Source: Apium graveolens
Taxonomy: Eukaryota > Streptophyta > Magnoliopsida > Apiales > Apiaceae
Assembly (NCBI RefSeq): GCF_009905375.1
Contig: NC_133650.1
Coordinates: forward strand, 299,707,957 to 299,771,956
DNA: 64,000 bases
Direction: 5' to 3'
The position numbers were made by a program, and so were the translations under genes. The number at the start of each line of letters is the position of its first letter. Positions within the stretch are counted from its first letter, which is position 1. Below the pieces are notes generated by a model, which saw nothing but the letters and a program-made list of their open reading frames with translations, searched no databases and was not told where the DNA came from. This document shows positions 1,034 to 40,740 of this stretch, one piece after another.

Positions 1034-4000
1034 ATGATGTCAGATCGAGATGTCAATAGGATTATATATTCAGCAAGCCCTCAGGACTGCGGGGTTGGAG
1101 AAGGAAGCTGGGCAGGCCTTTGCTTTAGTCCAACACAATGGTCAATGGTAAGTTTCCTTGATCAGAACGAATTATTTTCTAAGCAAAAACTGATGCACTT
1201 GATGACTTGATCTTAATTTTAACATTTAAGCTCCAAAAACACTGTGAATGCAACCTTTTAAGGACGTGGACAAATATGTTTTCTTGTGTCTACTGAGGAC
1301 AACTGGTCATGTGAGCATGAGAGTGAAGCATTGACATGAGAAAGGTTTTTGTACACAAATTTAGTAGTTGATCTTCGATTTTATAGGAAAATGATATATT
1401 TTCCTATAGCAGGTTAAAACATATAGATTGTTGTGTGAAGGCTGTTGAGGATTCCATAAACATTATATGTAATTTTTTTTGTACGCGCCTATGTTACTCT
1501 GACTCACATACGGAGTGTCACATACATGACGCATATCCGAGTCTCAGACTTTAAAAAACAATCTGAAATTTCGTGACACGGGGACACCGTCCTATTTTCG
1601 GACACGGGTAAGGGGACACAACATAATATATATTGATAAACAAGTAATGTAAGTATTCTATCTTAACAAAAAGTAAAAATGAAGCTCACATTAAACATGT
1701 TTTTTGTTAAGGACTTTGAAAATTAGGCATCTTCTCCACTTTTATCTCATTCTTGCTTCTTTCTTTCTTCTCACATATATTTTTTAAATTGTAAGATTCA
1801 CTCATATTTGATTTTTAAATTGATCAAAGTGTCCACGTTTTAGTCAAAGAATCCGACACAGAATAAGGGTCGTGTCCGAGTGTCTGACACGGGTACGGTC
1901 ACCTGAACAGAAGAGTCGGAGTAAAATAAGAGCTCTGACAATTTCCCCAGTGTTGAAATTCATCGCCGCTGTAGTTACTCGTAGGCCATAACAGTCTGAG
2001 GATATTATGAAAGTGTATTTAAGATGAGATATGAATGTACACGCCCGTGTTCTTACACACAAAAATTTGTATGTATTAATGAGGATAGTGCGCCTTAGAT
2101 TTCATCACAGGGCATGGAAGTCTACTCTGTATAAGTTAACTTATTTTGCAAGAAAATCAACATTTTAACAAAAACTTCCTTTTCTCTAAATCTTTTGACA
2201 TGATCTGGAAACTTATACCGTGGTCTTCACATTTCCTTAACTGAAGTTTTTGTTGTAGGCAGCTGTGGCACGCAGCTACTCCAAAAGCATTGATGTATAC
2301 GACCAAGATATTCACCTCCGGACTTTACAAACGTAAGTGGTGTCTATGATGTCGAATGATGATTGATATACATATTTATTAAAGCTGCTTAAAATAATCC
2401 ATAAGCCACAATTTTTCAGTCCATTTTTGATGAGTTATACCTATTTATGCTAATACGAAATCAACCCTGTAACAGTGGTGTCTGTTTTATAAACGTGTCA
2501 TCGTGTTCATAAATCATAACGATGCTATTGCAATGCTAAAAGCAGCCCCGTCCCTTTTTTGGGACGTTTGAACAAATAGTTCATTTTTTTGGCACATGTG
2601 TTCAGAATTGGACAAAAATGACACAAAACGCCACTATTTCTGGGGTTCTGCCATTGACACCTGGAAGTAGTGGCATTCTGAAGTATTTTAATTTATTTAT
2701 TTTCATTCCTTCCCCCTCCGTTTATGCCTTGTACATTTTTTTACAAGGTAAAAAATCATGGTGAATGGCATATTTTGACCCCTTATATTGAATTAAGTAA
2801 AAATTATTTTGGTCAATTTTTTTTGGTTGGATAGTGATATAAAACTATTTTTAGTACGTATTTTTTATTTTAATAAAAAAATAGTATATATATGACTTTC
2901 GTCGTTTCAAAAAGGGTACCTTGCGAGTCGAGTGCGCATTTTTTTGATGAAGACACAATTTCACGGGTTTTTCAAATGTAGTTGCAATTTTTTTTTGTAA
3001 AAACTTCTTTCCGTGTATTAGTACTTCTGTAGTACTTTGATTACTTTATATTTTTAAAAATAAATAAATTGAAAATTTATGTGTTTTGACTACCAAAAAA
3101 TGGTAGTATAAATTCATGATAAACTAAGAGAGAACTAATACATAACAGTAATTTGATACAAAATTGAAATTAGCACACAAATATTAATGATAATAACATT
3201 ACAATAAAGAAAGATACAACTAATATAGATCTAGAATGCATAAATGCAAAAAAAAAAACGAAATGGAAAAATAATGCAGATACAAAATACGAAATGAAAA
3301 TTTGCATGCCGTCAAATCAGAACACAATGATTCTCGTTAACATGCTGCGATCGAGGTTCAACATTACCATGATCATGGGTCACCAATACTTCGTGTTCAC
3401 ACAAGAGATGTATTGTTAACCCTAAATCTGCAGCTAACTCACTGTCTTCCGCACTCTGACGATTAACGTAAAACCTAGTTGAAGGTGCATCGGTCAGTCA
3501 GGTCTCGCCTGTATCAGTATCAAGGTTCATTTTGCATCCAGAAATGGGTGTAGAAGTTGCAGAGCAACGAAGTTCAACTCCCTATTAACTGGTACACCAT
3601 TTACTTCCGAAAAGACAACTTTAACTTTGTTACTGCAATGTAGTAGCAATTTTGAGAAAACAGAATACATATTTTGAAAAATCTTTGCACTAGGATGAAT
3701 TTAACTTGTTTTTCTTACATTTCATCACCAATAACCATTTTCAAAGACCTTTGATGTACATTTATTGTATTTGTAACTTGTTGTAAATTTCCTAGGTCAA
3801 CAATTAATCCAATCACATATACAACCCAGAAAAGAAGAAAATGTTAATATATAATGAAATGTAATACGAAAATGTTCAATGAAAATGGAGTACAATGATT
3901 ACCAACGCAATGATCATTTTGGAAGTGAACCTCATCAATTGTTAAAGTTAAATACATCTTCATAAGTGTTGGGAAATTCAGTAATTTGAGTTAAATAACA

Positions 4001-7000
4001 AATGAGAATGTGCATGTCCCTTACGACACATTTATAATTGCCCTCGTAGTGTATTACAAGAAAATTTAAAATATTATAAGTTTGATCTTCGATAATTCGA
4101 CCATGAAAACGACCTACCTCCCCATACGGTGTTGCTGTACGGACCCATGAATAGATTTATGAGAATCATATAAATGAATTTGGTGATTGACAAGATTAAG
4201 TTTTTAAAGCATCTTACATATTCATCAACAAGTATCATCTCCAAACCTCGATACGCTGCGTTGTTATTGCTATAGTCATCCCATTCTCGTGATAATTGAA
4301 CTTTGATTCTCCACTGAATTTGACTTACAGGCCGAAGGTTTCTTAGTGATGTGTATTGTACTGAATTTATTAAAATGTAGTATAAATGGTTTGTAACTTA
4401 TGCAATTGCAAAAGAAATGCAATATGACTTAAGATCGTGTACGTTTTAATTTATAGACCCTTATCAGTAAATGAGTTAGGTATTCCGTAAATACACAGGA
4501 TAATGCACATGCAAGTATTTTCAATAATTTTGAGACAAACACTGAAAATGTTCAAGTGGAAGGAGACACGGAAAAAAATAAAAACAAGTGAAATCATATA
4601 AATGAAATAAAGAGGAAAATATAACTCTTTGATAAAAGTTTCACTTTTTGCAGATGAAATTAAATAAGGTTACTTGTATCAATGTCACTTTGCAACTGCA
4701 AATTTGTAAGGGCATGCCACTGCTAGGTAGCCACATGCAGAATGCAACAAAGTAAATGAGTAGTCTTGTCAAATGCAGCAAAAGTTGTAAAAACTGTATA
4801 ATTTGACAAATCAATTATATGTGTTTCAAAGCAGTATGAAAATTAAGTAGCATGTGAATGTTACAGGCATGTCTACTTCATTTATGAGGTACAATAATTT
4901 TTGATTTGACAATGCAATAATTACTTTATACTTAAAAATAGATAAAATGAAATGACATTTCATCTTTGTTTATTATCTAAATAGGATGTTGTTCAGAAGT
5001 TGATGTAGTATATTAATTAAAGAGAAATGAGTTACACTCCTGGTGATATTATTCGAGCTACTGGTCGGAAATGGTTTTGTGATGACGATTTTAGGTATTC
5101 AATGGATCCGAATTTATGTTACTCAAGAGGTTCAGTAATCACGATGCATAGGGATGGGAATGACGTGTAGGGTGTTTGCAAATATGTGTAGCCCAATGTC
5201 AAGAGCATGGAGTGCGAATAACTAAACAACGCGCCATGCAAATGCAGCGAGACACCCCTCAACAACTGGAACTAGCTTTATTCCGTGCAAGAGAGGAAGA
5301 GAATCAAATGAGAATGCGTTTAAACCATATGGATCTAAAAAAAATGTAGGGAGTTTGCTAAAGATGACGACCATTACAGCGAAAGAATGTATCATCATTT
5401 CGTTACGAGTCCCGACTATGTTTCTGATTACTACTTGTCCGATGATGAGTAATAAACATATGAAGTGAGGTTCAAAATATGATAGATAATGCAATGCGTT
5501 GTATCATTTTTCATACAATATATTCAAATATTGTATTTTGATATTGTACTCTATTATTTTGAGATTTTGAAATTATTATGATAAATTTCAAAATGACCTG
5601 ACTACTCAGATAGCGTGTGAGTGTGTATGAAAAATTTATTATGAAGTACTGTACGAATCTATTGTCACGTAATTGTTATGTTGCCCTATAAATGTCTCAT
5701 TACTTGCAATTGAAAATCATAAAATGGATAAGGGTAAAAAAAGAGCATCTTCTAGCACATATAAGTCCATTTGGCGTCAGCTCAGTATCACGGAATGTAT
5801 CGGTCGCGTAAAGGAAATGAAAGAAGCTGAGAGCGCCAGAAAGATGAAGAAGAAGGTGAATCAAAATATTTTGGGCGTGATAAAAGCTGATAAAGAAAAG
5901 ATTTTAAAGGCTTACAATGATCGGTCCCGCACGGAGGATGAATGCATCCGTCAGATCGATGAAGTGTATAAAAAATATGACAAAATGGAAATCAACCTGA
6001 TTGAAAGAGACAATAGTGAAATTGCATGGTATGTTGAAGTTCATGAGGCCTGGCGTGAAGTTGGAGAAGATGAGAATGAAAAAGAGGCTGAAGATGTGGA
6101 GAGTGCAAGAAGTGATGAAGATTTATATGTTGTTAACCTTGCTGATTTTTAAGTAATCCTGTGATGTTTGTTGTATAATTTTAGTAATAATGTGAAGGCC
6201 TAATTGAAATGTGTGTTTAGAATGGGATACAACTAATAGTAGTTCCACATTTGTAAGTTCGAATGTACAGTACAATAAACAAACTTTTGTATGTAATGTT
6301 CGAAATAGCATGATAGGATACTTAAATAATACAAATGACAATTGTACTAAACCATGTAAAATGAAAGATAATTGGTGAAAAGTAAGACAAGAAAATGCAA
6401 TAATGCTAAGAAACAACAACTAGAAGTTCACGTTGTTAAGTGTGGGCGGCCTGAACATTTCTTGCTACGCTTGGTGTGACCTTCTTGGTTGCGTACAATA
6501 CATTTCTTTCCTGACCGCGGACCATCAATCTCCATCTGCACCGATTAGCCTTTATCTCCACGTTTTTTCTTAAATTTTTTCAATGACTCATCCGACACAA
6601 ACTTTCCATAGCCATGCCAAGGTAAGGTAATTCGTAGTTCCAGTATTCAGTTGGTTGCAACGGATAAATCATTGGCCTGTACACGTTCTCCACTGTCTGG
6701 TTCTTATGGCAATTTTCAATGAAATGATCCCAACTCAATCCATGTCTTATACAATCAACCATTGCTTGAGAGCACATCATATGATAGGTCGCCCATTTTC
6801 CACACGTGCACGTACGGTCATTGAGGTTGACGACCTGGGTTTTACCTCCATTTACCCTTCCTTTAGCAGTTGTGTATTGATGTGTAACTATTTTCAAGAT
6901 CCCACGTACACAAGATCCCACGTACACAATGAAAAGTAATTACCGTATGTCCTGTTGCCTTTTTTTGAATTTTTGCTAACATAGCGGCTGAATGCGCACA

Positions 7001-10000
7001 TAACTGTTGACCCTGTTGCAGACCGTCATCCACTATATTTTGATTTGTGTCAATAATTGTGACAGCCTTGTAGAAGAGGTACTCCATCATCGCTGTTACC
7101 GGAAGAAAACGAGCCCTTCTTATGTTGCCGTTGAAACCCTCAAACATGTTTGTGGTTGTTTGACCATAGCGAACACAAGTGTCGTGGGAAAGTATCCACC
7201 TCTCCACGGGTATTCTGGCAAGATAGTCAAGGGGGAATTTCACCCATCCTTGCCATGTATGCGTCATGTTTCGAGACTTGAGTGGTTCCAGGGTTCCACA
7301 TCAATTTTTTTAGTTCACCACCAGGGTGATGATGGCAAAAGTTGCTTCTGACATGGAGTAGACGAAACCTATGGATTCCTAATGGCTCAGCAAATCCGTT
7401 TTGAGGGTCTCGTATTGCAGAGATAATACCGGCTGCACGATCGGAGATGATGCACACGCCGACCTTTTGGCGACAAACATGTCTCCGAATACGTTGCAAA
7501 AACCAAGACATGTTTCCGTACGTCTCCTCATCAACCAAGCCATAGCAAAGAGGAAAAGGGTGGTTGTTCGAATCTACACCCATAGCAATAAGCAGCTTGC
7601 CCCTATATCTTTCCTTCAAGAAAGTTCCGTATATTGAAATCACCGGGCGCGCATGTTGCCACCCGTCCATCATTGCCTTCAAACACCAAAAGAATCGCTT
7701 GCATACGGACGTGCCCCATTCCTCAGCATGAGGCACGACATCGATCTCAACAATGGTTCCAAGATTTGTCTTCATTATGGCTGCAAAAAACATGGGCAGA
7801 GCTTGGTATGTTGTAGCCCAACTGCCATAGACTTCCTCAATGGCTATTTGTTTGCCTCTCCACGCTTTCTTGTACCCCACTATATGGTTGTGCTCGTTGT
7901 TGATAAGCGGGATAATGGTTTTAATGGGGATTTCTGGTGTATCTATTATCTGTTTCACATATCACAGTAAATGTCAAAATATTTCTGTACCAAATATGTA
8001 GCGAAGTTGAAAAGTTATGTAGGTGAAATTGCTTACTAGTGGTTTCACAATCCGCGAAATCATCCTTGCAGATAACTTCTTGTGATTGGCCAGGGTCTTC
8101 TTCGGCTAATGAGACCTCGACTGATCATGGCATAAACCATGCCTAGATACCCGAAGACCGGTTTTCCCGAAAAAAACGAATTTACTTCAAATATCGTATA
8201 CGGTCAGTCTCGCTACCTCTTTAGTTGCCGCCCCCTACTTGCTCATTCGGCCATAGCCTGCACTCCCCGGAAAAGCATTTTCACGTCTATTCGGTCCGTT
8301 TCATCCGACTTAGATTGAACTCATGCATGCTGTCGAAAGTCATCTTTTGTTCGAAGTCTTGTCCCCCCTATTTGTCCTATTTGTAAAGTACTCAAGAGAA
8401 AAAAAGGACTTTACTTGACCCACTCTCCAGTCTCCCGCACCGCCGGTGGTTGTTGGATATGAAAGGCAGGGCTCTTTCTTTTCGTCTTCATCCGCAAAAG
8501 CGTAGAAAGCCGTGATTTCATCATATTGGTTCTATCAACATACGAGGGATCTCATCGGAAATGTTTGATGCTTCTTGGGGCTTCTTTGGCGACCTTGAAG
8601 TCACCGGATGAATTGCCGAAGATTATTCCAGAATAAATGGGCAATAGTTAGAAGAGGTGCGCCAGCGGCGAGCAGAAGCAAGGTTATTAGATGCCTAGCG
8701 AAACTACAAGTGAAGGGGCGCTATCCGGAACCCTTAAGGTCGGGGACAATCTGCTTCGATTGGGCCTTGGCGGGTTGCTTCCTCTGTCGTCGCCGGGGAG
8801 CTCTTGGCGAGGGGGGACCTTAGGAGAAGTTGGCGTGTCCACGCTTACGGCTTCCGATGATCCACAAGAAAGGTGGCAGGATTCGAACCTATGGCCGGCC
8901 CACCCCTGACCTAATAAGAACGGAATATTCCACCCAAATCTCGATCAACTGACCACGTGAGAATACCGCCAAAAACAAGGGACCTACTTCTCATCCTAGG
9001 AGTTAGCAGGTATGAAAGAGATCTTGCAACGGCTGATCAACCATGCATTGTGTTCCTCTTTATTCACATTTATCCTCCAGTACCCAGAATCATGCATGAA
9101 AGCAGCTCTCATCCTCTAGTTACAGCCCTCCGCCCGACACTGTACAATGAGTTGTTTTTTGTTACTCTTTTTCGTTTTATATGTACGATCAGTGAAAATA
9201 TGAGCACGCCTCCCTGCAAACAAGAGGGTGGCTTTGTCATGGTAACACATTCCTGCACTCAGTTCCCCCTGATCGAGGTCTTCATCAACATATATATCAT
9301 TAGTGTTATCTATTATTGGGGGAATATATTTCTCTGTGCGAAACCATGGAACCTTTGGAACATGATGCTTTCCCCAACAACTGGAAATATGCTGGAAATT
9401 TCTTCCCACCATATTCTTTGGTTGTGAAAATGCCATATATACATTATCTCCACCATTACCTTCATTATTTTCATAACTACTCCCCCTTCATACCCTCCAC
9501 CATATTGAGTACTCCCCCCTCCAAACCCTCCACCATGCTGACTAGTCCCCCCTCCAAACCCTCCAATATGTTGACTAGTCCCCCCTTGCATACCCTCCAC
9601 CATATTGTCTAGTCTCCCTTTCATACCCTCCACCATATTGACTAGTCTAATTCATCTACTGAGGAGAATTTTCACCTTCATGATGATGATGAAGAAGAAT
9701 CTTCAGGCAACGATGGAAGTGAAGGGCATTTAGAGAGGAACGAAGAAATTTCCAGCATATTTCTAGTAGTTGGGGAAGAGCATCATGTTCCAAGGGTTCC
9801 ATGGTTTCGCACATAGAAATATATTTCCTCAATAATACATAACCCTAATGATATGTATGTTGATGAAGACCTCGATCAGGGGGAACTGACTGCAGGAATG
9901 TGTTACCGTGACAAAGTCACCCTTTTGTTGGCAGTGAGGCGTGCTCATATTTTCACTGATAGTACATATAAAACGACAAAGAGTAATAAAAAACAACTCA

Positions 10001-13000
10001 TTGTACAGTGCCGGGCGGAGGGCTGTAATTAGAGGATGAGAGCTGCTTTCATGCATGATTCTGGGTACTAGAGGGTACATGTGAATAAAGGGGAACACAA
10101 AGCATGGTTGATCAGCCGTTGCAAGATCACAAGAAGTTATCTGCAAGGATGATTTCGCGGATTGTGAAACCATTTGTAAGCAATTTCACATACATAACTA
10201 TTCAACTTCGCTACATATTTGGTACGGAATTTTTTTGACATTTATTGTGATATGTGAAACAGGTAATCGATACACCAGAAATCCCCATTAAAACCATTAT
10301 CCCGCTTATCAACAACGAGCACAACCAAATAATGGGGTACAAGAAAGCATGGAGAGGCAAGCAAATAGCCATTGAGGAAGTCTATGCAGCTGAGCTACAA
10401 CATACCAAGCTCTGCCCATGTTTTTTGCAGCCATCATGAAGACAAATCCTGGAACCATTACTGAGATCGATGCCGTGCCTCATGCTGAGGAACGGAGCAC
10501 GTCCGTATGCAAGCGATTCTTTTGGTGTTTGAAGGCAATGATGGACGGGTGCAACATTGCGCGTCCGGTGATTTCAATAGGCGGAACTTTCTTGAAGGGA
10601 AAATATAGTGGCAAGCTGCTTATTGCTATGGGTGTAGATTCGAACAACCACCCTTTTCCTCTTTGCTATGGCTTGGTTGATGAGGAGACGTACGAGAACT
10701 AGTCTTGGTTTTTTCAACGTATTCGGAGACATGTTTGTCGCCAAAAGGTCGGCGTGTGCATCATCTCCGATCGTGCAACCAATATTATCTCTGTAATACG
10801 AGACCCTCAAAACGGATTTGTTGAGCCATTAGGAATCCATAGGTTCCGTCTACTCCATGTCTAAAACAACTTTTGCCATAATCACCCTAGTGGTGAATTA
10901 AAAAAATTGTTGTGAAAAGCTGGAACAACCACGCAAGTCTCGAAATATGATGCATACACGGCAAGGATTGGTGAAATTCCCCCCCGCCCTGGACTATCTT
11001 TGCCAAAATACCCGTGGAGAGGTGGACACTTTCCCACGACACTGGTGTTCGCTATGGTCAAAGAACCACAAACATGCTTGAGGGTTTCAACAACAACATA
11101 AGGACTCGTTTCCTTCCGATAACAGCGATGATGGAGTACCTCTTCTACAAGGCTGTCAGAATTATTGACACACATCGAAATATAGTGGATGACGGTCTGC
11201 AACAGGGTCAACAGTTATGTGTGCGTTCAGCCGCTATGTTAGCAAAAATTCAAAGAAAGGCAACAGGACATACGGTTATCACTTTTCACCGTGTACGTGG
11301 GATCTTGAAAATAGTTACACATCAGTACAAAACTGCTAAAGGAAGGGTAAAGGGAGGTAAAACTCAGGTCGTCAACCTCAATGACCGTACGTGCACGTGT
11401 GAAAAATGCGCGACCGCGACCCATTATATGATGTGCTCTCACGCAATGGCTGGTTGTATAAGATATGGATTGAGTTGGGATCATTTCATTGAAAATTGCT
11501 ATAAGAACCAGACAATGGAGAACTTATACCGGCCAATGATTTATCCGTTATAACCAGCTGAATACTGGAACTACGAATTACCCCTACCTTGGCAGGGCTA
11601 TGAAAAGTTAGTGCCGGATGAGTCATTGAAAAGTTAAGAAAAAACGTGGAGATAAGGGCCAATCAGTGCGGATTCGAACGGTGGTTGATGGTCTGCGGTC
11701 AGGAAAAAATGTAGTGTATGCAACCAAGAAGGTCACATTAAGCGTAGCAAGAAATGCCCATGCCGCCCATACTTAACAACGTGAACTTGTAGTTGCTCGT
11801 TTCTTAGCATTATTGCATTTTCTTGTCTTACTTTTCACCAATTATCTTTTATTTACATGTTGTAGTACAATTGTCATTTATATTATCTAAGTATTCTATC
11901 ATGCTATTTCGAACATTACATGCAAAAGTTTGTTTATTGTACTGTACATTCGAGCTTACAAATGTGGAACTACTATCAGTTGTATCCTATTCTAAGCACA
12001 CATTTCAATGAGGCCTTCACATTGTTACTAAAATTATACAACAAACATCACATGATTACTTAAAAATCAACAAGGTTAACAACATATTGATCCTCATCAC
12101 TTCCTGTACTCTCCACAACTTCACCCTCTTTTTCATTCTCATCTTCTCCAACTTCACGCTAGGCCTCATGACCTTCAACATAGCATGCAATTTCACTATT
12201 TTCTATTTCAATCAGGTTGATTTCCATTTTGTCGTATTTTTATAAACTTCCACGATCTGACGGATGCGTTCATCCTCCCGGAGGGACCGATCATTATAAG
12301 CCTTTAGAATCTTTTGTTTATCAGCTTTTAACACGCCCAAAATATTTTGATTCACCTGCTTCTTCATCTCTCTGGCGCTCTCAGCTTCTTTCATTTCCTT
12401 TCCGCGATCGATATATTCCGCCCTACTGAGCTGACGCCAAATGAACTTAGATGTGCTGGAAGATGCTCTTTTTTTACCCTTATCCATTTTTTGGTTTTCA
12501 ATTGCAAGTAAGGAGACATTTATAGGGCAACATAATAATTACGTGACAACGGATTCGTACAGTACTTCATAATAAATTTATCATACACACTCAAACACTA
12601 TCTGAGTAGTCAGATCATTCCGAAATTTATCATAATAATTTCAAAATTTCAAAATAATATAGTACAATATCAAAATACAATATTTGAATATATTGTATGA
12701 AAAACGATACAACACATTGCATAATCTATCATATTCTGAACCTCACTCATACGTTTATTACTCATCATCGGACAAGTAGATCAGAAACATAGTCGGGGCT
12801 CGTAGCGAAATGATGATACATTAGTCGGGGCTCGTAGCGAAATGATGATACATTCTTGCGTTGTGATGGTCGCCATCTTCAGCAAACTCCCTACTTTTTT
12901 TTGTAGATCCATCCGGTTTAAACGCATCCTCATTCGATTCTCTTCCTCTCTTGCACGGAATAAAGCTAGTTCCAGTTGTTGAGGGGTGTCTCGCTGCATT

Positions 13001-16000
13001 TGTATGGCGCGTTGTTTAGTTTTTCGCACTCCATGCTCTTAATATTGAGCTACACATCTTTGCATACACCCTACACGCCATTCCCACTCCCTATGCATCG
13101 TGATTACTGAACCTCTTGAGTGACGTAAATTCTGATCCATTGAATACCTAAAATCGTAATCACAAAACCATTTCCGACCAGTAGCTCCAGTAATATCACC
13201 AGGAGTGTTACTCATTTCTCTTCAATTAATATACATCAACTTCCGAACGACATCCTATTTAGATAATAAACAAAGATGAAAGGCCACTTCATTTTATCTA
13301 TTTTTTAGTATAAAGTAATTATTGCATTGTCAAATCAAAAACTATTGTACCTCATATATGAAGTAGACATGCCTGTAACATTCACGTGTTACTTAATTTT
13401 CATACTGCTTTGAAACATATATAATTGATTTGTCAAAATTATACAGCTTTTGCTGCATTTGACAAAACTACTCATTTACTTTGTTGCATTTTGTATGTGG
13501 CTATCTAGCAGTGGCATGCCTTTACAAATATGCAGTTGCAAAGTGACATTGATACAAGTAACTTTATTCAATTTCATCAGCAAAAAGTGAAATTTTTATC
13601 AAAGAGTTATCTTTTCCTCTTTATTTCATTTATATGATTTCACTTGTCATTATTGTTTTTCGTGTCTCCTTTCACTTGAACCTTTTCAGTGTTTGTCTAA
13701 AAAATATTGAAAATACTTGCATGTGCATTATCCTGTGTATTCACGGAATACCTAACTCATTTACTGATAAGTGTTTATAAATTAAAACGTACACGATCAT
13801 AAGTCATATTGCATTTCTTTTGTAATTGCATAAGTTACAAACCATTTATACTACATTTCAACGGATTCAGTACAGTACACATCACTAAGAAACCTTCGGC
13901 CTGTAAGTCAAATTCAGTGGAGAATCAAAGTTCAAGTACCACGACAATGGGATGACTATAGCAATAACAACGTAGCGTATCGAGGTTTGGAGATGATACT
14001 TGTTGATGAATATGTAAGATGCTTTAAAAACTTAATCTTGTCAATCACCAAATTCATTTATATGGTTCTCATAAATTTATTCATGGGTTCGTACAGCGCA
14101 ACCGTATGAATGCATGAATACCGTTTGGGGAGGTAGGTCGTTTTCATGGTCGAAGGTCAAACTTATGATATTTCAAATTTTCTTGTGACACCCTACGAGG
14201 GCAATTATAAATGTGTCGAAGGGGACATGCACATTCTAATTTGTTATTTAACTCAAATTACTGAAATTCCTGACGCTTATGAAAATATATATTTGACTTT
14301 TGTTGATCTTTCAACAATTGATGAGGTTCACTTCCAAAATGATCACTTCGTTGGTAATCATTGTACTCCATTTTCATTGAACCTTTTCGTATTACGTTTC
14401 GTTATATATTAACATTTTCTTCTTTTCTGGGTGGTTGGATTAATTGTTGACCGAGGAAATGTACAACAAGTTACAAATGCTAGAAATATACATCAAAGGT
14501 ATTTGGAAATTGTTGTTGGTGATGAAATGTAAGAAAAACAAGTTAAATCCATCCTAGTGCAAAGATTTTTTAAAATATGTATTCTGTTTCCTCAAAATTG
14601 CTACTATATTGCAGTAACAAAGTTAAAGTTGTCTTTTCAGAAGCAAATGATGTACCAATCAATAGGGAGTTGAACTTCGCTGCTCTGCAACGTCTACTCC
14701 CATATACCATCACCATTTTTGGATGCAAAATGAACCTTGATACTGATACAGGCGAGACCTGACTGACCGATGCACCTTCAACTAGGTTTTACGTAATCGT
14801 CAGAGTGCGGAAAGACTACGCTGCAGATTTAGGGTTAACAATACGCCTCTTATGTGGACACGAAGTATTGGTGATCCATGATCATGGTGATGTTGAATTT
14901 CGATCGCAGCATGTTGACGAGAATCATTGTGTTCTGATTTGACGGCATGCAAATTTCCATTTCGTATTCTGTATCTGCATTATTTTTCCATTTCTTTTTG
15001 CATTTATGCATTCTAGATATATATTAGTTGTATCTTTCTTTATTGTAATGTTATTATCATTAATAGTTGCATGCTAATTTCAATTTTGTGTTGAATTACT
15101 GTTTTGTATTAGTTTTTTTTTGGTTTATCATGAATTTATACTATCATTTTTGGGTAGTTAAAATTCATAAATTTTTAATTTATTTATTTTTTAAAATATA
15201 AAGTAATCAAAGTACTACTAAAGGGAAAGAAGTTTTTACAATTTTTTTTTGCATCTACATTTGAAAAACCCGTGAAATTGTGTCTTCATCAAAAAAATGC
15301 GCACTCGACTCGCAAGACTCCCTTTTTGAAGTTACGAAAGTCATATATATACTATTTTTTCATTAAAATAAAAAATACATACTACAAATAGGTTTATATC
15401 ACTATCCAACAAAAAAAATTAGACCAAAATAATTTTTACTGAATTCAATATAAGAGGTCAAAATATGCCCTTGACCATGATTTTTTACCTCGTAAAAAAA
15501 TTCACAAGGCACAAACGGAGGTGGAGGGGAAAAAATTAAAAAACCCCAGAATGCCACTATTTCCTGATGTCAATGGCAAAACCCCAGAAATAGTGGCGTT
15601 CTGTGCCATTTTTGTCCAATTCTGAACACCTGTGCCAAAAAAATGAAATATTTGTTCAAACGTCCCAAAAACGGGACGGAGCCCTGAAAGCATATTATCT
15701 TGAACAGACTTGACCATTTTACATAATCACTGGTACACTAGGATGCTCATTACCGATCTGATTGCAATATGCACATGTTCAATTAAATATAACTTGTACA
15801 TTGTTACTTCTCTATGATGTGGTTGGTCACTGTCATAGGAGGATTACATCCTAAGAACCGGGGACACTTGGGTCGTATGCCGAGTCCCTGTGTCGGATTC
15901 TCATACACACGTATCCCCGTATTGGACACACGGATTCTTCCACTATACTAGACTGAAATTTAATCTTTAGAAATTGTAGTCAAAATTTATTTTAGCAAGC

Positions 16001-16391
16001 TACAATCATAAAATTAAGTATTCATGTCTATTAGTACTACAAAAGTAATGATTAACGTATCCATTTTTGCATGAACTAAAAGCTTTTAATTGAATTTTTG
16101 TGTTTTAGATTCAATAAATGATGCATTTGATTCATTTTTTAATGCAAGTTTTGGTTTTGTTAGTAGATTTTATTATGTTTAACATGAAATATATAAGAAT
16201 TTTTGTGTTTGTTTTCCCTGTGTCCCCCGCACCCGTATCCCCGTATTATTATATTTGTCGAATTCTCGTATCCCCACACTACGCACTCGCACTCCCGCAC
16301 CCGTGTCCTTGCTTCCTAGATTACATCACAGTTATCTTTATATTTGTTCTATGCCAGATTTTATTTACATGTTTCTATATTTAGAATATAA

Positions 16392-16426
<35 letters not shown>

Positions 16427-19400
16427 TTGTTATGATGTTAAAATTTAGATGCATAGGCTGAGCATGGCACCTTTGCTCTGCACACTTTCCAAAACAAGAT
16501 CTCTAGCCATCCATCTAGAGATGAAATTCAATATTTTGGACCCATTTAATGTGGAAGAACTATGCTTTTCTCAGGGAAACTATAAACCCTTAAGAGGAAA
16601 AAAGGGATTGAGATGCGGAAGAAAATGAAAAGAAAAGTATGATAGATGAAGGGGACAGCTTTGGGAGTGGGGAAAAAGAACAGTATATTAAAAGAATAGT
16701 TTGTAAATGTTTGATAAAAGTTCAGTCACTATTTATTTTTTTCAGTTTTTGATATATTTATGTACATCAATCAATGCAGTATTACACTTTTACTGAAATG
16801 AGTATTTATTTTCAAGCTTTGCCATATTTTCGAGAGTCCAACTCTGCTTCCAACTTTTTACAGCAGTGCACTCAACCAGCTATTGTTTTAATTGAATAAA
16901 CTATTACACATTTTTCTGAATATTTTATGACTCTAATAAAGCTATTTGACAGATTGCGGTATCCAACTTCTTTAAGTTTTGTACAGAACTTATGTTTAGG
17001 AAATGGAAGTTCTTTATTAGCTGTCACAGAAGGTTGCCAGGTTTACTTCTATAAACTGTTATCTATTTGGATATGTTATATTATTGCATGTATCTTCCTC
17101 TCTTATTCTCGTCATTTTTGTAGCTGTCCTTGTGGGATTTAAGAGTAAAAGAAAATAGTGGTTGTGTGCATAGAATTACTGGATCTGTTGGAGATACTTT
17201 ATACGCAGTCAGCAACTCTTTATATGGTAATATAGCAGTAGGTGGAGCTGATCGTACCGTTACTATCTATGATCCCCGCAGGTAGTTTCCTATTCAATAT
17301 TAAGTGTCCTAAAATGTTAATCTATTAATCATGCAACTTTCTTATGCTTGTATGTAGGGGAGCTTTTTAACACTGTTCTATTAAGGGTCAAATTTTCAAG
17401 GCAAGTTTTGATTTGGAAAAAATTAAGAGAGTGATTAAAAACATTCTAGGTCAACTAAGGCTAAAGCAGCAAGTGTGATAATGAAGATTTTGGCAATTCT
17501 TTCCTTTGGGTGATTTACATGCACCGTCGACCCTAATACTTTGATTAGAAAATATATTTTTTGCCGAACTACAGGATTTTTCTTAAAGTTTTTCCATCAT
17601 TTATTCTTTTCTGTTACTGTGTGGGATTCCATTAAAATAAAAGAGAGATATTTTTTTATGTGTGTGTGCGCGTATGTTTCATCGTATTCTGGCCTTTGCA
17701 CTTGGTTTGTTAATAATAATGAAATCCTGATCTCGGTATACAATGTTCTGTGTAGATTGACAGCTATGTCAAGGTGGGTTCATTGTTCAAAATATGAGGT
17801 CAGTGTTGATTCTTTTTTGACTTATTTTAATGCGATGCACATGCTTTAGTTTCTCTCCCTGGAAAGAAAAACTCTTCCTATATGGAAGAACTAGGTATAC
17901 GAATTGATTTGGTGGACGGAAGTTTCTTCATACAAACTTTATTCTTGGAAACTGTCATTTTTCTTGTAATGGAGTCATGTATACTCCTTTTTGCTTGCAT
18001 GATTATCGTATTTAGTGATTCTTACAGGAGAGGAGACATACATAAATCAAATGCGCACACACATTATAAATGTGACATCTGTGTCGTGTTACAGTAGATT
18101 GTTTCTAAATGGATATTGTTTATAGGGATAGAAAATTAGAGTGTTATGCATGAGTTTTATATGAAATTTAATGTTGGCGGCTTTGCTTTTGTTTTACTAT
18201 GTATTATGTGACCTACCTTCTGTTTATGCATACGATTGGAATATTTATGTCTACCTGGCCATAATAGGCTATACAATTATTAATGTTCTGCATATGCGTA
18301 ACAAAAAAATCATTCACTTTTTGGTGCAGATTACTGGTCTGGCTTTCTCATGTGCTGACTCCAACTACATCTACATACAAGGGGTTGATTATGAGGTAAA
18401 TTCTTTCCATGTGTCAGAGTAATAACATTATGGAATGCTTCAAACCTGACACTGTCTCATGTTTTAGCACTCATATAAATTACTGTGCATCTCTATGATA
18501 CTGTTAAGTGTTATCTGAAGTGGTAGGGGTTTATTGGAAATGTTTAATATCATATTGGTCCCTCACACCCCTTTTCATTGAGCGATCATAAATTATGGAG
18601 AGCACTTTTGGCTTTGGGGGTTGTCATCACATGAAACTGTAGTGTGTTTTTTTTGCTAAATGTTGTAGTGTGGTTTACCTAGAAGATATACATATTTTGT
18701 TCTCTAGATTAATCAGCAGGGAAAAATGTGTGGTCTACCTCTGTTATTAGTATACTGTATTCCTTTGTCTCCCTATTATACATTCCATTGATTAAAATAA
18801 TTTGCTAGGACACTACCCTAAGAAAATGAAGGCATGTAAAGATGATGATGCTCTTTAAACGCCGAGTCCATCTCCTTGTATTGGTCCCCGTATGCTGGAA
18901 TAAGTGTTTTTGTGGGTCTAGGATCCAAGGGTCAGGAAAGGGAATCAAGGTTAGATGTAGAGCAACATGACTATCTTTGCTCCGCGTAGATCTTTGTAGT
19001 TCAATGATATCCTACAACATTACTCTCCGTTTGATACTTTATTATGGCCTGATTTTTAGTTTAATACTTCTGTGAATTCCAGAATAGTGAGTACTTAATT
19101 GTAATCAAAGGTTAAAATTACTTGATATAAAGTAGTTAATATTCCAATAATGCAAACAAATTTATTAAAAAATTACATATCATATATCGAATCTTAAACA
19201 CAAAAAGATTTTTTTAATTCTTGTACAACTTTGAGATGGTGCAAGCCATGGCAAAAGCTTTTTTATTGTCTAAACACTTGATGAACTAGAGAATAGCCAG
19301 CACAGCTTCAGCAAGAAATTTGAAACCTGATCGTTAATACTTATTTTACAGAAGTAAACGTACCACAAGTTTGGAGTTCGGGCTATGGGAGACCTACAAT

Positions 19401-22722: not shown

Positions 22723-23300
22723 AATAATTAGAAAAACAGGCCGGGGTTAGGTTAAATTTCCATACAAAACCTATTCAAACGGGGGACGATTTTGTTGAAA
22801 GACCTACGTGGTTAAGTTTGATAGCTCAATTAGGTTAAAAGTTTATCATCCGTCAATCCCAGAGTTTCTCGGTCAGTTTTAGAGCTCTATTTATTTATTT
22901 TACAGTACCATTTTTTTATCATCATCTTTATTTTTTTAATCTTCCCTGTATGTTTGCATTGCTTTTTTTATGATTTGTACCCTCGTAATTTAGTTTATGA
23001 TACTGTTACACTAGTTTGTCCTGTTTGTTATTCAGGTTTTTATGGTGTGTGCTTATAATAAGTACGAGATTTTATAAGGTTAGCTTGTTTTGATCGGCTC
23101 ATACTTCCTAACAGTAGCGACCCTGTATTCACAACAACTACACCCGTTAAAATGAACTAAATTCATAGATTTTAGTGCTTAGTATGTGTTCATCATTACA
23201 CACGCAAGACAACCCCTTATTTATTTTTTCTTGTTTTGGTTTGTTGAATCTGTATTAGGGTTTAGAGCAAAGTTTTATTTGTCGAAATCAATAAAGATTG

Positions 23301-26300
23301 ATGGCTCGAAAGAAGCCTGTCAGGCGTGACGAAGAGGCAACTGAATTACCGGAGGATCAAGTGGCTGAGGAGGTGATGCAGGTTGCACCTGTTAAAGACA
23401 AGGGGAAGAAACAGAAGTTCATGAATTCTCGAGATAATGAAGAGGACGGTTATGATAATGTTGTGCAGGGTGATGGTGATACTGATGACGATGTTACGCA
23501 GAAGTTAAATTTGAGAAATAATGCGAATAATGCTAGGTTAACTACTTCGGGTTTTGAGTTGCTTGGGGTTGATGGTGAGAGTTCTGGTGTTCATGATCAG
23601 GATGGCGACAATGCATCAAGTGAGGTAGATGGTAATGCTGCTCTAGCTTTTAGGGATAATGACGATTCTAGCTCTTTCGGTGGAGATGCATCCATAGTAA
23701 TATTTTCTGGTAAAAAGAAGTCATCGAAAAAGAAGAGTGACACTGGTTTTGCTCAGCTTGAGGCTGAGAAATCTGACAAAGCTTTGGGTGAGCAAGAAAA
23801 GCCTAGTACAAGTGTTAGTGATGATGTGGTGGTAACTTCAGTAAGCAAAAAGAAGAAAAAGAAGAGCGGAAGGACTGCACAGGAAGAAGATGACCTTGAT
23901 AAGATTCTAGCAGAACTTGGTCTAGGCCCGCCACCAGCAAAGAGCGATACTGCTCCACAACAGGAAGAAAAAGTTCCAACTCAAACTGAACCAGAAGTTG
24001 GAGAAGGCGTTGTGGAGTCTGCTGCACAGAAGAAGAAGAAAAAGAAAAAGGAGAAGGAAAAGGAGAAGAAGGCTGCTGCTGCAGCATCTGCACCCTCTGT
24101 AGAAGAAAAACAGGAAGGAATAAAGAATGAAGTTGCAGAGAAGAAGAAAGTCCCAAGACATGTCAGGGAGATGCAAGAGCGGATTGCCAAACAAAAGGCG
24201 GAGGAAGAAAGAAAGGAAAGGGAAGAAGAGGAGAGATTGAAGAAAGAAGAAGAGCAGAGGATACTGCAAGAAGAGTTGGAAAGACAAGCAGAAGAGAAAA
24301 AAAGATTGAAAAATGAGAGAAGGAAGGAAAAACTTTTGAAGATGAGACAAGATGGAATGCCAATAACAGCGAAACAGAAGGAAGAAGCTCGTCGGCTGGA
24401 GGCAATGAGGAACCAATTTCTTGCTAGTGCTGGTGGTGTACCTCTCACAAATGCCGACATTGCTGGTCCATCAAAGCGGCCCAAGTATCAGAAAAAGAAG
24501 ACAAAGCCACAATCTCAGGTAAATGGGGAAACCCTTTTTGACACTGATGAAAATGAAACCACAGAAGCAGATAAAAATCAGGAAGTTATGCCCTGTTCGG
24601 CCTCTGAAACTGAGGATGTTGAAGAGACAAACTCAATGGAAGTAGAGGAGAAATCTGATGTTGCTGATGTAGTTGAAGAGGATGGGATGGAAGAAGAGGA
24701 TGATGAGGAAGAATGGGATGCTAAGAGTTGGGATGACGATAATCTTAAGCATCTTGGTAAAAGTGCATTGGTTGATGAAGAGACTGACTTGGAACCGGAA
24801 ACTGTGGTAAAACATAATACAGAACGTTTACCTACTGGCAGTTGTAACACCAAACCATCAAAATCTACTGAGACAGTGTTCTCGACTGCTCCAGTGAAAT
24901 CTGAGGATAATGATAAAAGCCTGCCAATGGGTGTTATTGCAGCCAAAACTAAGCAGAAGAATATAGCTCAGAAAAGAGAATCCCAAAAAGCAGAAAATGA
25001 AAATCTCCGGTCCCCTATCTGCTGTATTATGGGTCATGTTGATACTGGAAAGACCAAGCTGCTTGATTATATCCGAGGCACTAATGTCCAGGAAGGTGAA
25101 GCCGGAGGAATTACCCAGCAAATTGGCGCAACATATTTTCCTGCTGAAAATTTACGGGATAGAACTAGGGAATTTAACGCTGGTGCAAAATTGAAAGTTC
25201 CAGGCCTGTTGGTTATTGATACCCCTGGGCATGAGTCATTTACAAACTTGCGCTCTCGGGGATCCGGGTTATGTGATATTGCAATTTTGGTCGTGGACAT
25301 AATGCATGGATTAGAACCACAAACCATCGAATCACTTAACCTATTGAGAATGAGAAGTACAAAGTTTATTGTGGCCTTGAACAAGGTGAGATATACTGTT
25401 CTTTTACCTTTATAAAGTGCAATTTTCATAATGATTTCCTTGACTTATCTGGTTTCTTAATCATGACTTCACAAAGAGCAGGTGGATAGATTGTATGGGT
25501 GGAAAACTTGTCGCAATGCACCAATCAAGAAGGCAATGAAGCAACAGAGTCAAGATGTCCAGAATGAATTTAAGAGAAGGCTTATTCAGGTTATTTATTA
25601 TTTCTTTATTTCTTAATTTTTCCCAGGCGGGCATGTTAAGTTACACTTCTTTTTGGGGGGGACAACTTTAGATCACCACCGAGTTCAAGGAGCAAGGATT
25701 GAATACTGAGCTCTACTATGACAACAAAGAAATGGAGGAGACTTTTAATATTGTACCTACAAGTGCAATCAGGTACGTAAGCTATATGTTTATTCTTGTA
25801 AAACCTTCTTTGATGTTCCTCTACTTTGTTAGATTTAATGATGACCTTCTCTGTTCTTTACGATACAGTGGCGAAGGCATCCCGGATCTGCTAATGTTAC
25901 TAGTGCATTGGTCACCGAAGACTATGGTTGAAAAACTTATGTACAGCGATGTAGTGCAGGTAGACTTTCTTCTTAACTTTCTGCCCAGTTATTCAAGAAT
26001 CAAGTCTTGTTTCTGAGTGTTTTAGAATTCTTTGTCAGTGTACAGTTCTGGAGGTTAAGGTCATTGAAGGTCAGGGAACTACACTTGATGTGGTGTTGGT
26101 TAATGGTGTGCTCCACGAAGGTGATCAGATAGTTGTCTGTGGTACGCAGGTAAACTTCTGATGTTACTGTGTAAGGTGTAATTTGATGATAGACTCAGAG
26201 AATTAAGCATGGACTCTTTGTTAGGGACCTATTGTTACGAGAATACGAGCATTGTTGACTCCCCATCCAATGAAGGAACTCCGTGTTAAGGTAAAACTCT

Positions 26301-29300
26301 TTCTTAATTCTTTCTTTATCCGTGTTAAGGCCCTAAGATAGCAATAGGAAATACGAAAATGCAATTAGTGAAATTTTTTAGGATTCGTGGTACACTTTGA
26401 TTCATAAAAGATATTCACTGCAACAGTGATAGCCATATCAGCATGCTGTTTGCTGATCACACCCACTCACATAATGTGGAGAGATAGAATTGCAAGACTT
26501 TGACCTACCAATCGAAGTATGGAAGAGAAAAATTGTCTCACACTTTTCTTTCTCCACATTAAGTGATTCGGTATCAGCATGCTTACATTATTTACTGGGA
26601 TTCACTCTTGCAGAATATAGACCAAAATGATTAGCCTTTTATTTAGATGTCTTGAAAAAGTTATTTATCTTTCCTGTCATATAGAAATATGTTAGTTTCA
26701 TTAGAAGAATATTGTGTACTTTCTGATTTCAGGGTACTGATCTTCACCATAGAGAAATCAAGGCTGTCCAGGGTATCAAGATTACTGCTCAGGTGAAAAC
26801 AATAGCTTGGATCCTTTGATTTTGTTTAATGTTAACCTTTTTGAAGGAATTATAAGTTCTTAGACCAAGTAGGCAGTGTAATGTCTGTTTTTGGTGGGTT
26901 TCTCTTTTGTTTGTACTGTCTGTCTACTTGTTCTTTCTGAGTTTTTTTTTCTTCTACGCCTTAACTGTGTATATGTGTGTGTGCATGTATCCAGTCCTTT
27001 CTTATAAATGAGTATAGATCTCCTTACTGGTAATATCGTTTTTGAATCAAATTCATATTTGAATTGTCCTTTTGTGAAGGTCTTTGTGAATTACTTTGTG
27101 CTTTATATTTTCTGCAGTGCCTTGAACATGCAATTGCTGGCACCTCTCTTTATGTGGTTGGGCCTAATGATGATTTGGAAGTAGTCAAAGAGTCAGCCAT
27201 GGAAGACATGAACTCGGTCATGAGCAGAACTGACAAAACTGGTGAAGGGGTTTACGTTCAAGCTTCTACTCTTGGTTCATTGGAAGCATTGCTAGAGTTC
27301 TTGAAAACCCCAGCAGTTAATATTCCTGTGAGTGGTATAGGCTTAGGCCCTGTCCACAGGAAGGATGTCAATAACGCTATGCATGAAAAGAAGAAAGAGT
27401 ACTCAATCATCCTGGCTTTTGATGTCAAAGTGAGACCAGAGGCTCAGGAACATGCAGATAAGCATGGTGTAAAAATATTCACTGCAGATATCATTTACCA
27501 CTTGTTCGATCAATTTAAGGCCTACATTCGTACTCTTAAGGAGGAAAAGAAGGAAGCTGCTGATGAAGCAGTGTTTCCATGTGTGCTTAAGATTATGCCG
27601 AATTGCGTTTTTAACAAGAAGGATCCAATTATTTTAGGTGTTGATGTTCTTGAGGGGATTGCTAAGGTGCGTAATTTCTTGTCGTTGCATTGCCAGGTTT
27701 TGCGTTACCACTACATTAATGATGTAATTGTTTTCATTTTTCACCACATATTGTCTGATGAGTAAAAAGAGTGTTTAAAGCTCTTTAAACAAACTGTGTG
27801 CATGGGTCTTAAACTGGTGCCACATAAATAAGTAAATAATGTTTGTAGGAGTTTTGAATTTTTATTTTCCACGGCTATATTGAAGTTATTGTGTTAATGC
27901 ACTTTGATCGTGGGATTTCCTAATTTAAGCTCATTGGTTCTTATTAGATGATATTTTACTTATCTTTTCAACTTCCTTTCTATAAATTCAAATTTCTTAA
28001 TGTGGAGTACTTTGTTGGAAAGAGAACCATAGTTTCCTAAATAGTGACTTCTAGTAAATATTACTATCAACTTTTTCATCTTAAGCATCCCGGCTAATTC
28101 TACTTATCCTAACAACACCTTACAAATTTTTAAAACAACTGACAATTTTTCAAATAATAACTATGAATCTTTCCTTGAACAACATATATGCAGGTCGGAA
28201 CTCCAATATGTATTATCCAAAAGGAAGTCATTGATATTGGTCAGATAGCTTCCATTCAAAAAAACCACAAGCCAGTTGATTTTGCTAAGAAAGGAAGTAC
28301 GGTGGCCATCAAGGTACCAAACCTCAAACTGCGCTTGTAAAGTTCACATCTTTTAATTTTCGTGATTTTAGTACCTAAGATTACAATTATATATTCTTAG
28401 TTTATTTTGGCTGGTCTGCACGAGTGAGTAGTAAATAGTATCAATGATAGCAAAGGCATATTTACAACCTGATAAGGGCTAATGTTTTCTGAGACGAGTG
28501 TATTAAAGGTTCAGTGTTTTTTGTAATTATATCATGTCGCTTAAAGAGATATGGAAAGGGAAAATTATTGTGCTATAACTGGTACAAATAGTAGAGATAG
28601 GATCCTCTTTTAATTCAAATGCATGAAACCACATTTTATATACAATTACAGGTGTTTGCTAGTTTTAAGAATATACAAATATTACACTGTTTTAATGTCT
28701 GCGCATATAAAACATAAAAAGTCTAGTTTTCTTCTTTTCCTTTTCTTTGGTACAACAAACTGAAGAAAAAACACTCTATTTAAAATCTCTTTAATACTCC
28801 CTTGCTCTAATACGGTTCTTTGAGGTGAGAACTTCCACACAGGGTGTTGAAGATTGAAATCTGGGTTGGCGCTTCTTTATCTGCACTTTTTTGTTTTTTA
28901 ATCGTTCTTTGAACAATTTCTTTATCTCCTTGATGTTATAAATTAAATTACTGTTGATGTGTGAATATCTGCTTTCCTTCCACTTTCTCCTATTAATGAA
29001 AAGGATTAGAGAAGAGTAGACTGGCTTCATTTATATACTAGATACTCACTTGCAATTATATATGTGTTTCTTCTGTAGATAATTGGAAGCAATCCGGATG
29101 AGCAGCAAAAAATGTTTGGCAGACATTTTGAGATTGAAGATGAGCTTGTCAGCCACTTGTCTCGGAGGTCGATCGATGTACTGAAGGAAAATTATCGGGT
29201 AAGTTAAAATCTCACTTTATGTGGTTTGGAAGTAGAGGAATGAGAGTTGAGTAGTTTGTAGCCATTATGCACAAACACCCGTTTCCTTTGTTCATTCTGT

Positions 29301-39214: not shown

Positions 39215-39445
39215 GTTTTAACCTAACAATTGTTGACAAGTAGTACATTAGTTCTTTTAACTTTTCTATTTAAGTTCCATAATATTAACGTTATTTAAAT
39301 TTATACATAATATTAATGTTGCATATTAATGTTATTTTTTAACAAAAAATATTATCCAACTCTTATTATTAATATTAATATTATTTAAAATATTTTCAAC
39401 ACCAAAACTCTTATTATCCAACTTTAAATATTGTAAGAGAATTGT

Positions 39446-40740
39446 GACAGAGCACCCAGCAATGAGACATTGCTGGAGGTCCTTACTGCAGCAATGACTC
39501 ATTGCTGGGTACTATGTTCCACCCAAAACACACTGCCTCTTTTTGTTAACAAAAGTGAGTTTAGTAATATTAATATTTTTAAAATATTTTCCAACACCAA
39601 AATTCTTAAAATATTTAAAATATGCAGTATTAATGTAAAAATTTGAAAAAAGTGATTTAATCAAAAAAGTCAACTAGACATTAAATTAATCAATGCGAAC
39701 TAGTGACAGAGCACCCAGCAATGAGACATTGTTGGAGGTCCTTATTGCAGCAATGACTCATTGCTGGGTACTCTGTTCCACCCAAAACTCACTGCCTCTT
39801 TTTGTTAACAAAAGTGAGTTTAATAATATTAATATTTTTAAAATATTTTCCAACACCAAAATTCTTAAAATATTTAAAATATGCAGTATTAATGTAAAAA
39901 TTTGAAAAAAGTGATTTAATCAAAAAAGTCAACTAGACATTAAATTAGTCAATGCAAACTAGTGACAGAGCACCCAGCAATGAGACATTGCTGGAGTTCC
40001 TTACTGCAGCAATGACTCATTGCTGGGTACTCTGTTCCACCCAAAACTCACTGCCTCTTTTTGTTAACAAAAGTGAGTTTAGTAATATTAATATTTTTAA
40101 AATATTTTCCAACACCAAAATTCTTAAAATATTTAAAATATGCAGTATTAATGTAAAAATTTGAAAAAAGTGATTTAATCAAAAAAGTCAACTAGACATT
40201 AAATTAGTCAATGCGAACCAGTGACAGAGCACCCAGCAATGAGACATTGCTGGAGGTCCTTACTGCAACAATGACTCATTGCTGGGTACTCTGTTCCACC
40301 CAAAACTCACTGGCTCTTTTTGTTAACAAAAGTGAGTTTTGTAATATTAATATTTTTAAAATATTTTCCAACACCAAAATTCTTAAAATATTTAAAATAT
40401 GCAGTATTAATGTAAAAATTTGAAAAAAGTGATTTAATCAAAAAAGTCAACTAGACATTAAATTAGTCAATGCGAACTAATGACAGAGCACCCAGCAATG
40501 AGACATTACTGGAGTTCCTTACTGCAGTAATGACTCATTGCTGGGTACTCTGTTCCACCTAAAACTCACTGCCTCTTTTTGTTAACAAAAGTGAGTTTAG
40601 TAGTATTAATATTTTTAAAATATTTTCCAACACCAAAATTCTTAAAATATTTAAAATATGCAGTATTAATGTAAAAATTTGAAAAAAGTGATTTAATCAA
40701 CAAAGTCAACTAGACATTAAATTAGTCAGCTAGTGATGTA
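39446..40740. repeat. Five tandem copies of a 259 bp unit
   Basis: GACAGAGCACCCAGCAATGA recurs at 39446, 39705, 39964, 40223 and 40482, exactly 259 bases apart each time. Each unit holds a pair of CAGCAATGA...TCATTGCTGG motifs able to pair with each other and, 40 bases on, AACTCACTG...GTTAAC...AGTGAGTT. Identity between units is above ~95% by eye. The 70-codon ORFs repeated at the same spacing are by-products of the array. Confidence 0.95.

What the first reader, a model, noticed from the sequence alone, without database searches (positions are those of the whole stretch)
2545..15683. A 13 kb mobile palindrome in a transcribed intron: natural hairpin source against MULEs
Two ~5.93 kb arms, each with a full half-MULE, are inverted around a 336 bp spacer inside intron 2 of a host gene. 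Read-through of the intron gives an RNA able to fold into a ~6 kb double strand covering transposase, ORF A, ORF B and the RPA-like ORF. Maize Mu killer, an inverted duplication of part of MuDR, silences MuDR in trans in this way. Outer ends that are both the same (non-transposase) end, plus a 9 bp duplication with one mismatch, suggest that the palindrome moved here as a unit.
Basis: partly seen in the sequence, partly recalled or inferred. Interest (0 to 1): 0.9.

Follow-up and report, generated by a model that had tools for sequence, protein, structure and literature searches.

The report
Old inverted-dimer jumping gene in intron
In celery, two copies of the same half of a dead jumping gene sit head to head inside an intron of a conserved gene; the layout resembles maize Mu killer, but the copies have drifted apart and nothing here shows that the locus silences anything.

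Summary
The palindrome is real. The window lies on contig C4 of a celery assembly. Two inverted copies of the 3' ~6 kb of a Mutator-like element (MULE), 92.5% alike (K2P 0.079), lie in a 14.6-kb intron of a conserved WD40-like gene, flanked by a 9-bp target-site duplication with one mismatch. The 336-bp "spacer" is not foreign: the left copy runs on for 243 bp and the right copy for 93 bp into the transposase gene. The cut points lie 293 bp apart in a sister copy. The junction matched end to end only here among 40 scored candidates of 163. The arms group together, but only just.

The silencing reading is weaker. The arms diverged neutrally as pseudogenes. None of 28 sister copies examined keeps an open frame of 450 aa. 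The arms show less CG-to-TG decay than sisters, opposite to what lasting hairpin self-methylation predicts; this signal is moderate. In its favour, 955 of 1,126 perfectly paired 21-mers match sister copies exactly, and Mu killer is a close structural precedent.

Verdict: a Mu killer-like inverted dimer, probably a repair accident; transcription and silencing untested. Small RNA data would decide.

The parts
2536..2544 (.). left target-site duplication CTAAAAGCA
   Evidence: sequence
15684..15692 (.). right target-site duplication CTGAAAGCA (one mismatch)
   Evidence: sequence
2545..9405 (-). left arm: 3' half of a celery MULE, transposase sense on - strand; includes the 936-bp later insert
9742..15683 (+). 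right arm: 3' half of the same MULE family, transposase sense on + strand
9406..9648 (-). part of the 'spacer': left copy continuing into the Gly-rich repeat of the transposase gene (with a 138-bp deletion at 9401-9405 relative to sister L039, between short GAAGA repeats)
   Evidence: order checked against P0032 and P0037
9649..9741 (+). part of the 'spacer': right copy continuing into the acidic stretch of the transposase gene
9646..9649 (.). head-to-head junction, about 2 bp microhomology (TC, 9646-9647)
7230..7961 (-). left arm, open piece with MULE transposase domain PF10551 (E 2.8e-13)
9119..9487 (-). left arm, open piece of the DNA-binding region; weak DBD_Tnp_Mut match (E 0.0011, below cut-off) in a frame with stops as X
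9652..11550 (+). right-arm transposase pseudogene (several stops and frameshifts)
5724..6152 (+). ORF B of the left arm, family-specific protein of 142 aa, opposite strand to the transposase
12215..12538 (-). ORF B of the right arm, shorter open piece
4077..4397 (-). RPA-like piece (DUF223, E 1.2e-4, just below Pfam cut-off) in left arm
13834..14106 (+). RPA-like piece (DUF223, E 5.9e-5, just below Pfam cut-off) in right arm
8087..9019 (.). later insert in the left arm: patchwork of short pieces, several from the mitochondrial contig
1043..1147 (+). host gene exon (WD40-like), donor gtaagt at 1148
2259..2332 (+). host gene exon just upstream of the palindrome, donor gtaagt at 2333
2333..16952 (+). 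host gene intron that holds the palindrome
16953..17040 (+). host gene exon just downstream of the palindrome
17124..17282 (+). host gene exon; further exons near 17754, 18327, 19804 and 20374

Best explanation
A defective celery MULE in an intron of a WD40-like gene was turned into an inverted dimer of its own 3' half. The most likely route (inferred) is abortive repair: both sides of a break at the element copied the same end inward from one template, for unequal distances, and were joined by end joining at 9648/9649. This gives the same terminus on both outsides, the TSD, the 293-bp offset and the microhomology in one event. Since then both arms have drifted neutrally for a few million years; the left arm lost 138 bp and took up a mitochondrial patchwork. 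If the gene is expressed, the pre-mRNA could pair over about 5.8 kb, so the locus can be a double-stranded RNA precursor, but today it is most likely a passive relic and not a working silencer.
For: SHOWN: arms, TSD and both 3' termini. Spacer made of both arms, breakpoints 293 bp apart in sister L039. Junction query matched end to end at 1 of 40 scored candidates (163 candidates in all; 171 matches, list cut); the other matches listed are one-sided, and in the paired copies I compared (for example C3:296650682 and 296651003) the two sides lie in opposite orientation. No other pair of long inverted copies close together in the lists (40 candidates scored in each). L+R clade: ultrafast bootstrap 97 on 30 sequences and 2,447 columns, 87 on 9 sequences of the outer part. 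Both arms share a W-to-stop change, seen in 2 of 26 sisters with that region, and both lack one base at a second site where 0 of 26 sisters do. Neutral drift: differences by codon position 41 of 527, 38 of 526, 40 of 527 in four transposase blocks. Longest open frame 331 aa, 0 of 30 sequences (28 sisters and 2 arms) reach 450 aa. Less CG decay in the arms: 12 of 261 against 234 of 1,815 CG sites in 14 sisters. INFERRED: the repair route and the passive state.
Against: The L+R stem is short (0.003 against tips of 0.036 and 0.044). In the outer part L is nearly as close to L049 (92.0%) as to R (92.1%). On protein columns 34 of 45 quartets favour L+R, 8 are tied and 3 go against; only 3 derived residues are shared by L and R against 29 and 27 private ones. 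The shared missing base may be two different deletions (L CACAATGC, R CACAAAGC, sisters CACAAATGC). A palindrome formed elsewhere that then transposed would look the same. The CG result is moderate: lowest of 15 loci, sisters vary from 5.3% to 17.6%, and by per-sequence CG/CHH means the left arm (2.06) is not extreme in the inner part. Exact 21-mer matches to sisters (955 of 1,126) show that trans-targeting is possible in principle. Only 40 of 478 candidate copies were scored, and celery annotation holds predicted MULE proteins of this family, such as P0003 with 446 aa, so a live sister may exist.
Confidence: 0.55

Rival explanations
1. Natural hairpin silencer: transcription of the intron yields double-stranded RNA whose small RNAs silence (or once silenced) the sister MULEs in trans.
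For: Intron of a conserved gene whose eight exons in the window are open. 94.9% of aligned positions could pair in RNA counting G-U, 93 paired runs of 21 nt or more, longest 152. 955 of 1,126 perfectly paired 21-mers match exactly in 40 fetched sister stretches (34 places); reversed control 0 of the arm 21-mers. Mismatched hairpins can avoid self-methylation and keep working (PMC9263138, abstract and passages), which would fit the low CG decay.
Against: No RNA data. Arms 7.5% apart plus 33 gaps, whereas Mu killer was described as a perfect 2.4-kb hairpin (PMC2563033, passage). The mismatch designs in PMC9263138 changed every C or about 25% of bases, more than here. The 28 sampled sisters are broken, so there may be few targets left. 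Intron RNA is normally short-lived (general knowledge).
Confidence: 0.15
2. The palindrome formed at another site and transposed here as one composite element with two 3' termini.
For: TSD at both outer ends; both ends look like family termini.
Against: Junction found at one place only among the candidates scored, so no sister palindrome supports mobility; a TSD inherited from an ordinary first insertion explains the ends too.
Confidence: 0.25
3. Two MULE copies inserted separately in opposite orientation, followed by deletion between them; or an assembly artefact.
For: The family is large (478 candidates, 696), the tree is star-like and the L+R stem is short.
Against: Outer ends share a TSD (chance 1.1e-4 at fixed register); L is the best hit of R among the copies scored; exact element ends and unequal private changes argue against an artefact.
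Confidence: 0.05

Closest known systems
Mu killer (Muk) of maize
   Same: Inverted duplication of part of a MULE with transposase sequence; both outer termini come from the same element end; lies beside genes (PMC3440606 and PMC2563033, abstracts and passages).
   Different: Here the end away from the transposase start is kept, whereas Muk keeps the mudrA end; arms 5.9 kb and 92.5% alike instead of a perfect 2.4-kb hairpin; inside an intron; old instead of newly arisen; no silencing shown.
MULEs with multiple TIRs (PMC3310237, passages)
   Same: Rearranged MULE ends flanked by TSD.
   Different: Those carry extra copies of TIRs; here a whole 6-kb half including coding sequence is inverted.
Arabidopsis PAI1-PAI4 inverted repeat (named in PMC9263138, passage)
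   Same: Natural inverted repeat in a plant genome.
   Different: PAI is described as densely methylated; here the arms have a weaker CG-decay footprint than most sister copies. Methylation itself was not measured.

Membership tests
Mutator-like element (MULE) | MULE transposase domain | tested here: met
   PF10551 E 2.8e-13, over cut-off
Mutator-like element (MULE) | about 9-bp target-site duplication | tested here: met
   9 bp with one mismatch
Mutator-like element (MULE) | inverted terminal regions in the intact family | tested here: inconclusive
   sister on C11: 5' and 3' terminal regions 76% alike over 382 columns, inverted; its exact 5' end and TSD were not found
Mu killer-like silencer | inverted duplication of part of a MULE including transposase sequence | tested here: met
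Mu killer-like silencer | both outer termini from the same element end | tested here: met
   both resemble the family 3' end; it is the other end than in Muk
Mu killer-like silencer | perfect hairpin | tested here: not met
   92.5% identity, 33 gaps
Mu killer-like silencer | transcribed hairpin processed to small RNAs | not testable with these tools
   no RNA data
Mu killer-like silencer | silences active sister elements in trans | not testable with these tools
   only indirect: 955 of 1,126 paired 21-mers match sisters; no sister with an open frame of 450 aa among 28 examined

The most novel reading that the evidence does not exclude
A long-lived, host-driven RNAi locus: the inverted dimer, held in the intron of a conserved gene, kept making mismatched double-stranded RNA that silenced its family and helped end its burst, while its mismatches and genic position kept the locus itself from being methylated (hence the low CG decay).
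Probability: 0.1. Interest if true: 0.75.

Novelty: new member of a known kind. Interest (0 to 1): 0.42.

Why it matters
Mu killer, a standard example of a transposon silenced by its own inverted copy, arose within maize Mutator lines (PMC2563033, passage). An old, intronic counterpart in another plant family, with its sister copies in one assembly, allows a direct test of whether such dimers persist as silencers or decay into relics. The CG-decay comparison with sister copies is a cheap way to ask about the past methylation of an inverted repeat from sequence alone.

Tried and rejected
Separate insertion of the arms, and an adapter artefact, disfavoured as told above. Foreign spacer rejected. 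Rfam search of the window at gathering thresholds: 0 matches. ARAGORN: 0 tRNAs. The shared 1-bp loss was first taken as proof of common descent, then downgraded because the arms may have lost different bases. My first codon-position count had two overlapping blocks and one block in a wrong frame; one search replaces it. The Fisher p-value of the CG test (3.4e-5) was downgraded because sisters vary and sites within a locus are not independent. In one search the per-sequence CG/CHH means of the inner part put the right arm level with L035 as lowest (1.81) but the left arm (2.06) above L023 and L028; in the outer part both arms are lowest of 9. CHG/CHH of L-R is above the sister median in the inner part (about 2.2 against 1.5) and below it in the outer part (about 1.1 against 1.6), so CHG gives no clear message. 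One search used 14 of the 28 sisters (the nearer clade); one search used all 28 for the inner part and 7 for the outer part. In one search part of the left arm's C-terminal projection was misplaced, which adds noise to its counts. Short inverted pieces (about 250 bp or less) lie beside several copies (for example C5:113505221, C10:14152360, C8:62439905); they are not 6-kb palindromes.
Full report
WHAT WAS CHECKED. Inverted arms 2545-9405 and 9742-15683 exist. Aligned over 5,836 columns they are 92.5% identical, with 269 transitions, 166 transversions, 33 gaps and K2P 0.079. Identity is fairly even along the arms (0.90 to 0.94 per block). The largest gap is 936 bp present only in the left arm. 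The 9-bp TSD has one mismatch. With commonly used plant rates (6.5e-9 to 1.5e-8 per site per year, recalled) the arm distance means about 2.6 to 6 million years.

WHERE IT IS. A transposase query found celery (Apium graveolens) MULE proteins; one, P0005, reproduces left-arm sequence with part of the insert. The held assembly has 3,332,948,439 bases and the window is C4:299707957-299771956. The palindrome lies in intron 2333-16952 of a WD40-like gene (280 proteins at E 1e-10 or better, 120 of them listed). Eight exons in the window align to P0061 without stops. The 2,544-bp upstream flank has one full-length place; the other 39 candidates scored, of 201, match only a repeat at about 1487-1933. 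Transcription was not tested.

WHAT THE ARMS ARE. Each arm carries a broken transposase gene (PF10551 in the left arm; both arms align to sister transposases), an ORF B region and a DUF223 (RPA-like) piece just below the Pfam cut-off in both arms. ORF B had 4 database matches; the best, P0181, comes from a contig of the same length (4,839 bp) as that of transposase P0017, probably the same contig. Relative to a sister on C11 spanning about 8.7 kb between its terminal regions (2.1 kb in its middle were not fetched) each arm is the 3' 6.0 to 6.3 kb; the 5' terminus and the start of the transposase gene are missing from both. No TSD was found for that sister.

THE TIP. Against sister L039, window 9651 onward is colinear with position 3524 onward, while 9648 backward is colinear with 3231 onward on the other strand; the left copy lacks 138 bp (3477-3614). 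So the spacer is 243 bp of left copy plus 93 bp of right copy, and the junction (about 2 bp microhomology) joins points 293 bp apart. Sister proteins P0032 and P0037 confirm the order Gly-rich repeat, acidic stretch, DNA-binding domain. A 182-bp query across the junction matched end to end at 1 of 40 scored candidates (163 in all); the other matches listed are one-sided.

ONE EVENT OR TWO. R's best hit in the genome is L (91%), then C3 and C2 copies at 90% (40 of 478 candidates scored). A tree of 28 sisters and both arms puts L and R together (ultrafast bootstrap 97, stem 0.0032, tips 0.036 and 0.044); the outer part gives 87 with 7 sisters. The support is real but thin because the family expanded in a burst. 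On protein columns 34 of 45 quartets favour L+R, 8 are tied, 3 go against. The pair distance ranks 51st of 435, so the arms split before the youngest sisters did. Together with the shared TSD this favours duplication from one copy.

HOW IT FORMED (inferred). Repair in which both broken ends copy the same terminus inward and are then end-joined explains termini, TSD, offset and microhomology in one step, without a second palindrome elsewhere. Transposition of a ready-made palindrome remains possible.

WHAT IT DOES. Codon positions differ about equally between the arms (41 of 527, 38 of 526, 40 of 527): they diverged without visible selection on the protein. Of 30 sequences (28 sisters, 2 arms) none has an open frame of 450 aa; the longest is 331 aa. 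Celery gene models of this family exist nonetheless (P0003, 446 aa), so a live copy is not excluded. RNA of the intron could pair at 94.9% of aligned positions. CG-to-TG decay against the family majority is 12 of 261 sites in the arms and 234 of 1,815 in 14 sisters, while CHG (19 of 211 against 110 of 1,458) and CHH (48 of 1,078 against 350 of 7,468) do not differ. In pairwise form, CG/CHH for L-R is 1.55 against a median of 2.28 in 378 sister pairs (15 at or below L-R) for the inner part, and 0.77 against 1.83 in 21 pairs (0 at or below) for the outer part. Hairpin transgenes are reported as invariably methylated in the repeat unless mismatched (PMC9263138, abstract and passages). The low CG decay therefore argues against long-lasting self-methylation. 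It does not exclude a mismatched, unmethylated hairpin. By locus the effect is lowest of 15, so moderate, and not every way of counting makes both arms extreme (see Tried and rejected). Exact 21-mer matches to sisters (955 of 1,126 perfectly paired, in 40 fetched stretches from 34 places; reversed control 0) show that targets by sequence exist.

COMPARISON. Mu killer shares the layout but keeps the other end, was described as a perfect 2.4-kb hairpin with 26-nt siRNAs (PMC2563033, passage), and its read-through model was disputed in PMC3440606 (passages). My full-text searches for Mu killer-like or palindromic MULEs (8, 15, 9 and 10 papers listed) showed no title or abstract start describing such a case in celery; this is a limited library and no proof of absence.

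Noticed in passing
window 8087-9019: The left-arm insert is a patchwork of short pieces (about 49-86 bp), best hits 97-100% identical to scattered places. Pieces 28-88 (inside cox1), 115-163, 164-212, 610-683 and 683-746 match contig C4848 (371,275 bp, with a complete COX1 frame, so taken as mitochondrial) at separate positions: it looks like a break patched with mitochondrial scraps, much younger than the arms. The rest of the insert was not traced to C4848.
   Followed up: partly
window 9401-9405: 138-bp deletion in the left copy between short GAAGA direct repeats, removing the acidic stretch of the transposase.
   Followed up: yes
window 1487-1933: A repeat of about 440 bp in the neighbouring host intron, with 39 other candidates scored elsewhere (73-81% identity), perhaps a small non-autonomous element.
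   Followed up: no
window 5724-6152: ORF B is a family-specific 142-aa protein with only 4 database matches, encoded opposite to the transposase; function unknown.
   Followed up: partly
window 39444-40728: Tandem array with a period of about 259 bp, copies about 97% alike.
   Followed up: no
window 23295-27762: Next gene downstream looks like a translation initiation factor eIF5B/IF-2 (GTP_EFTU in 23295-25412, E 3.8e-27; the name is my reading).
   Followed up: no
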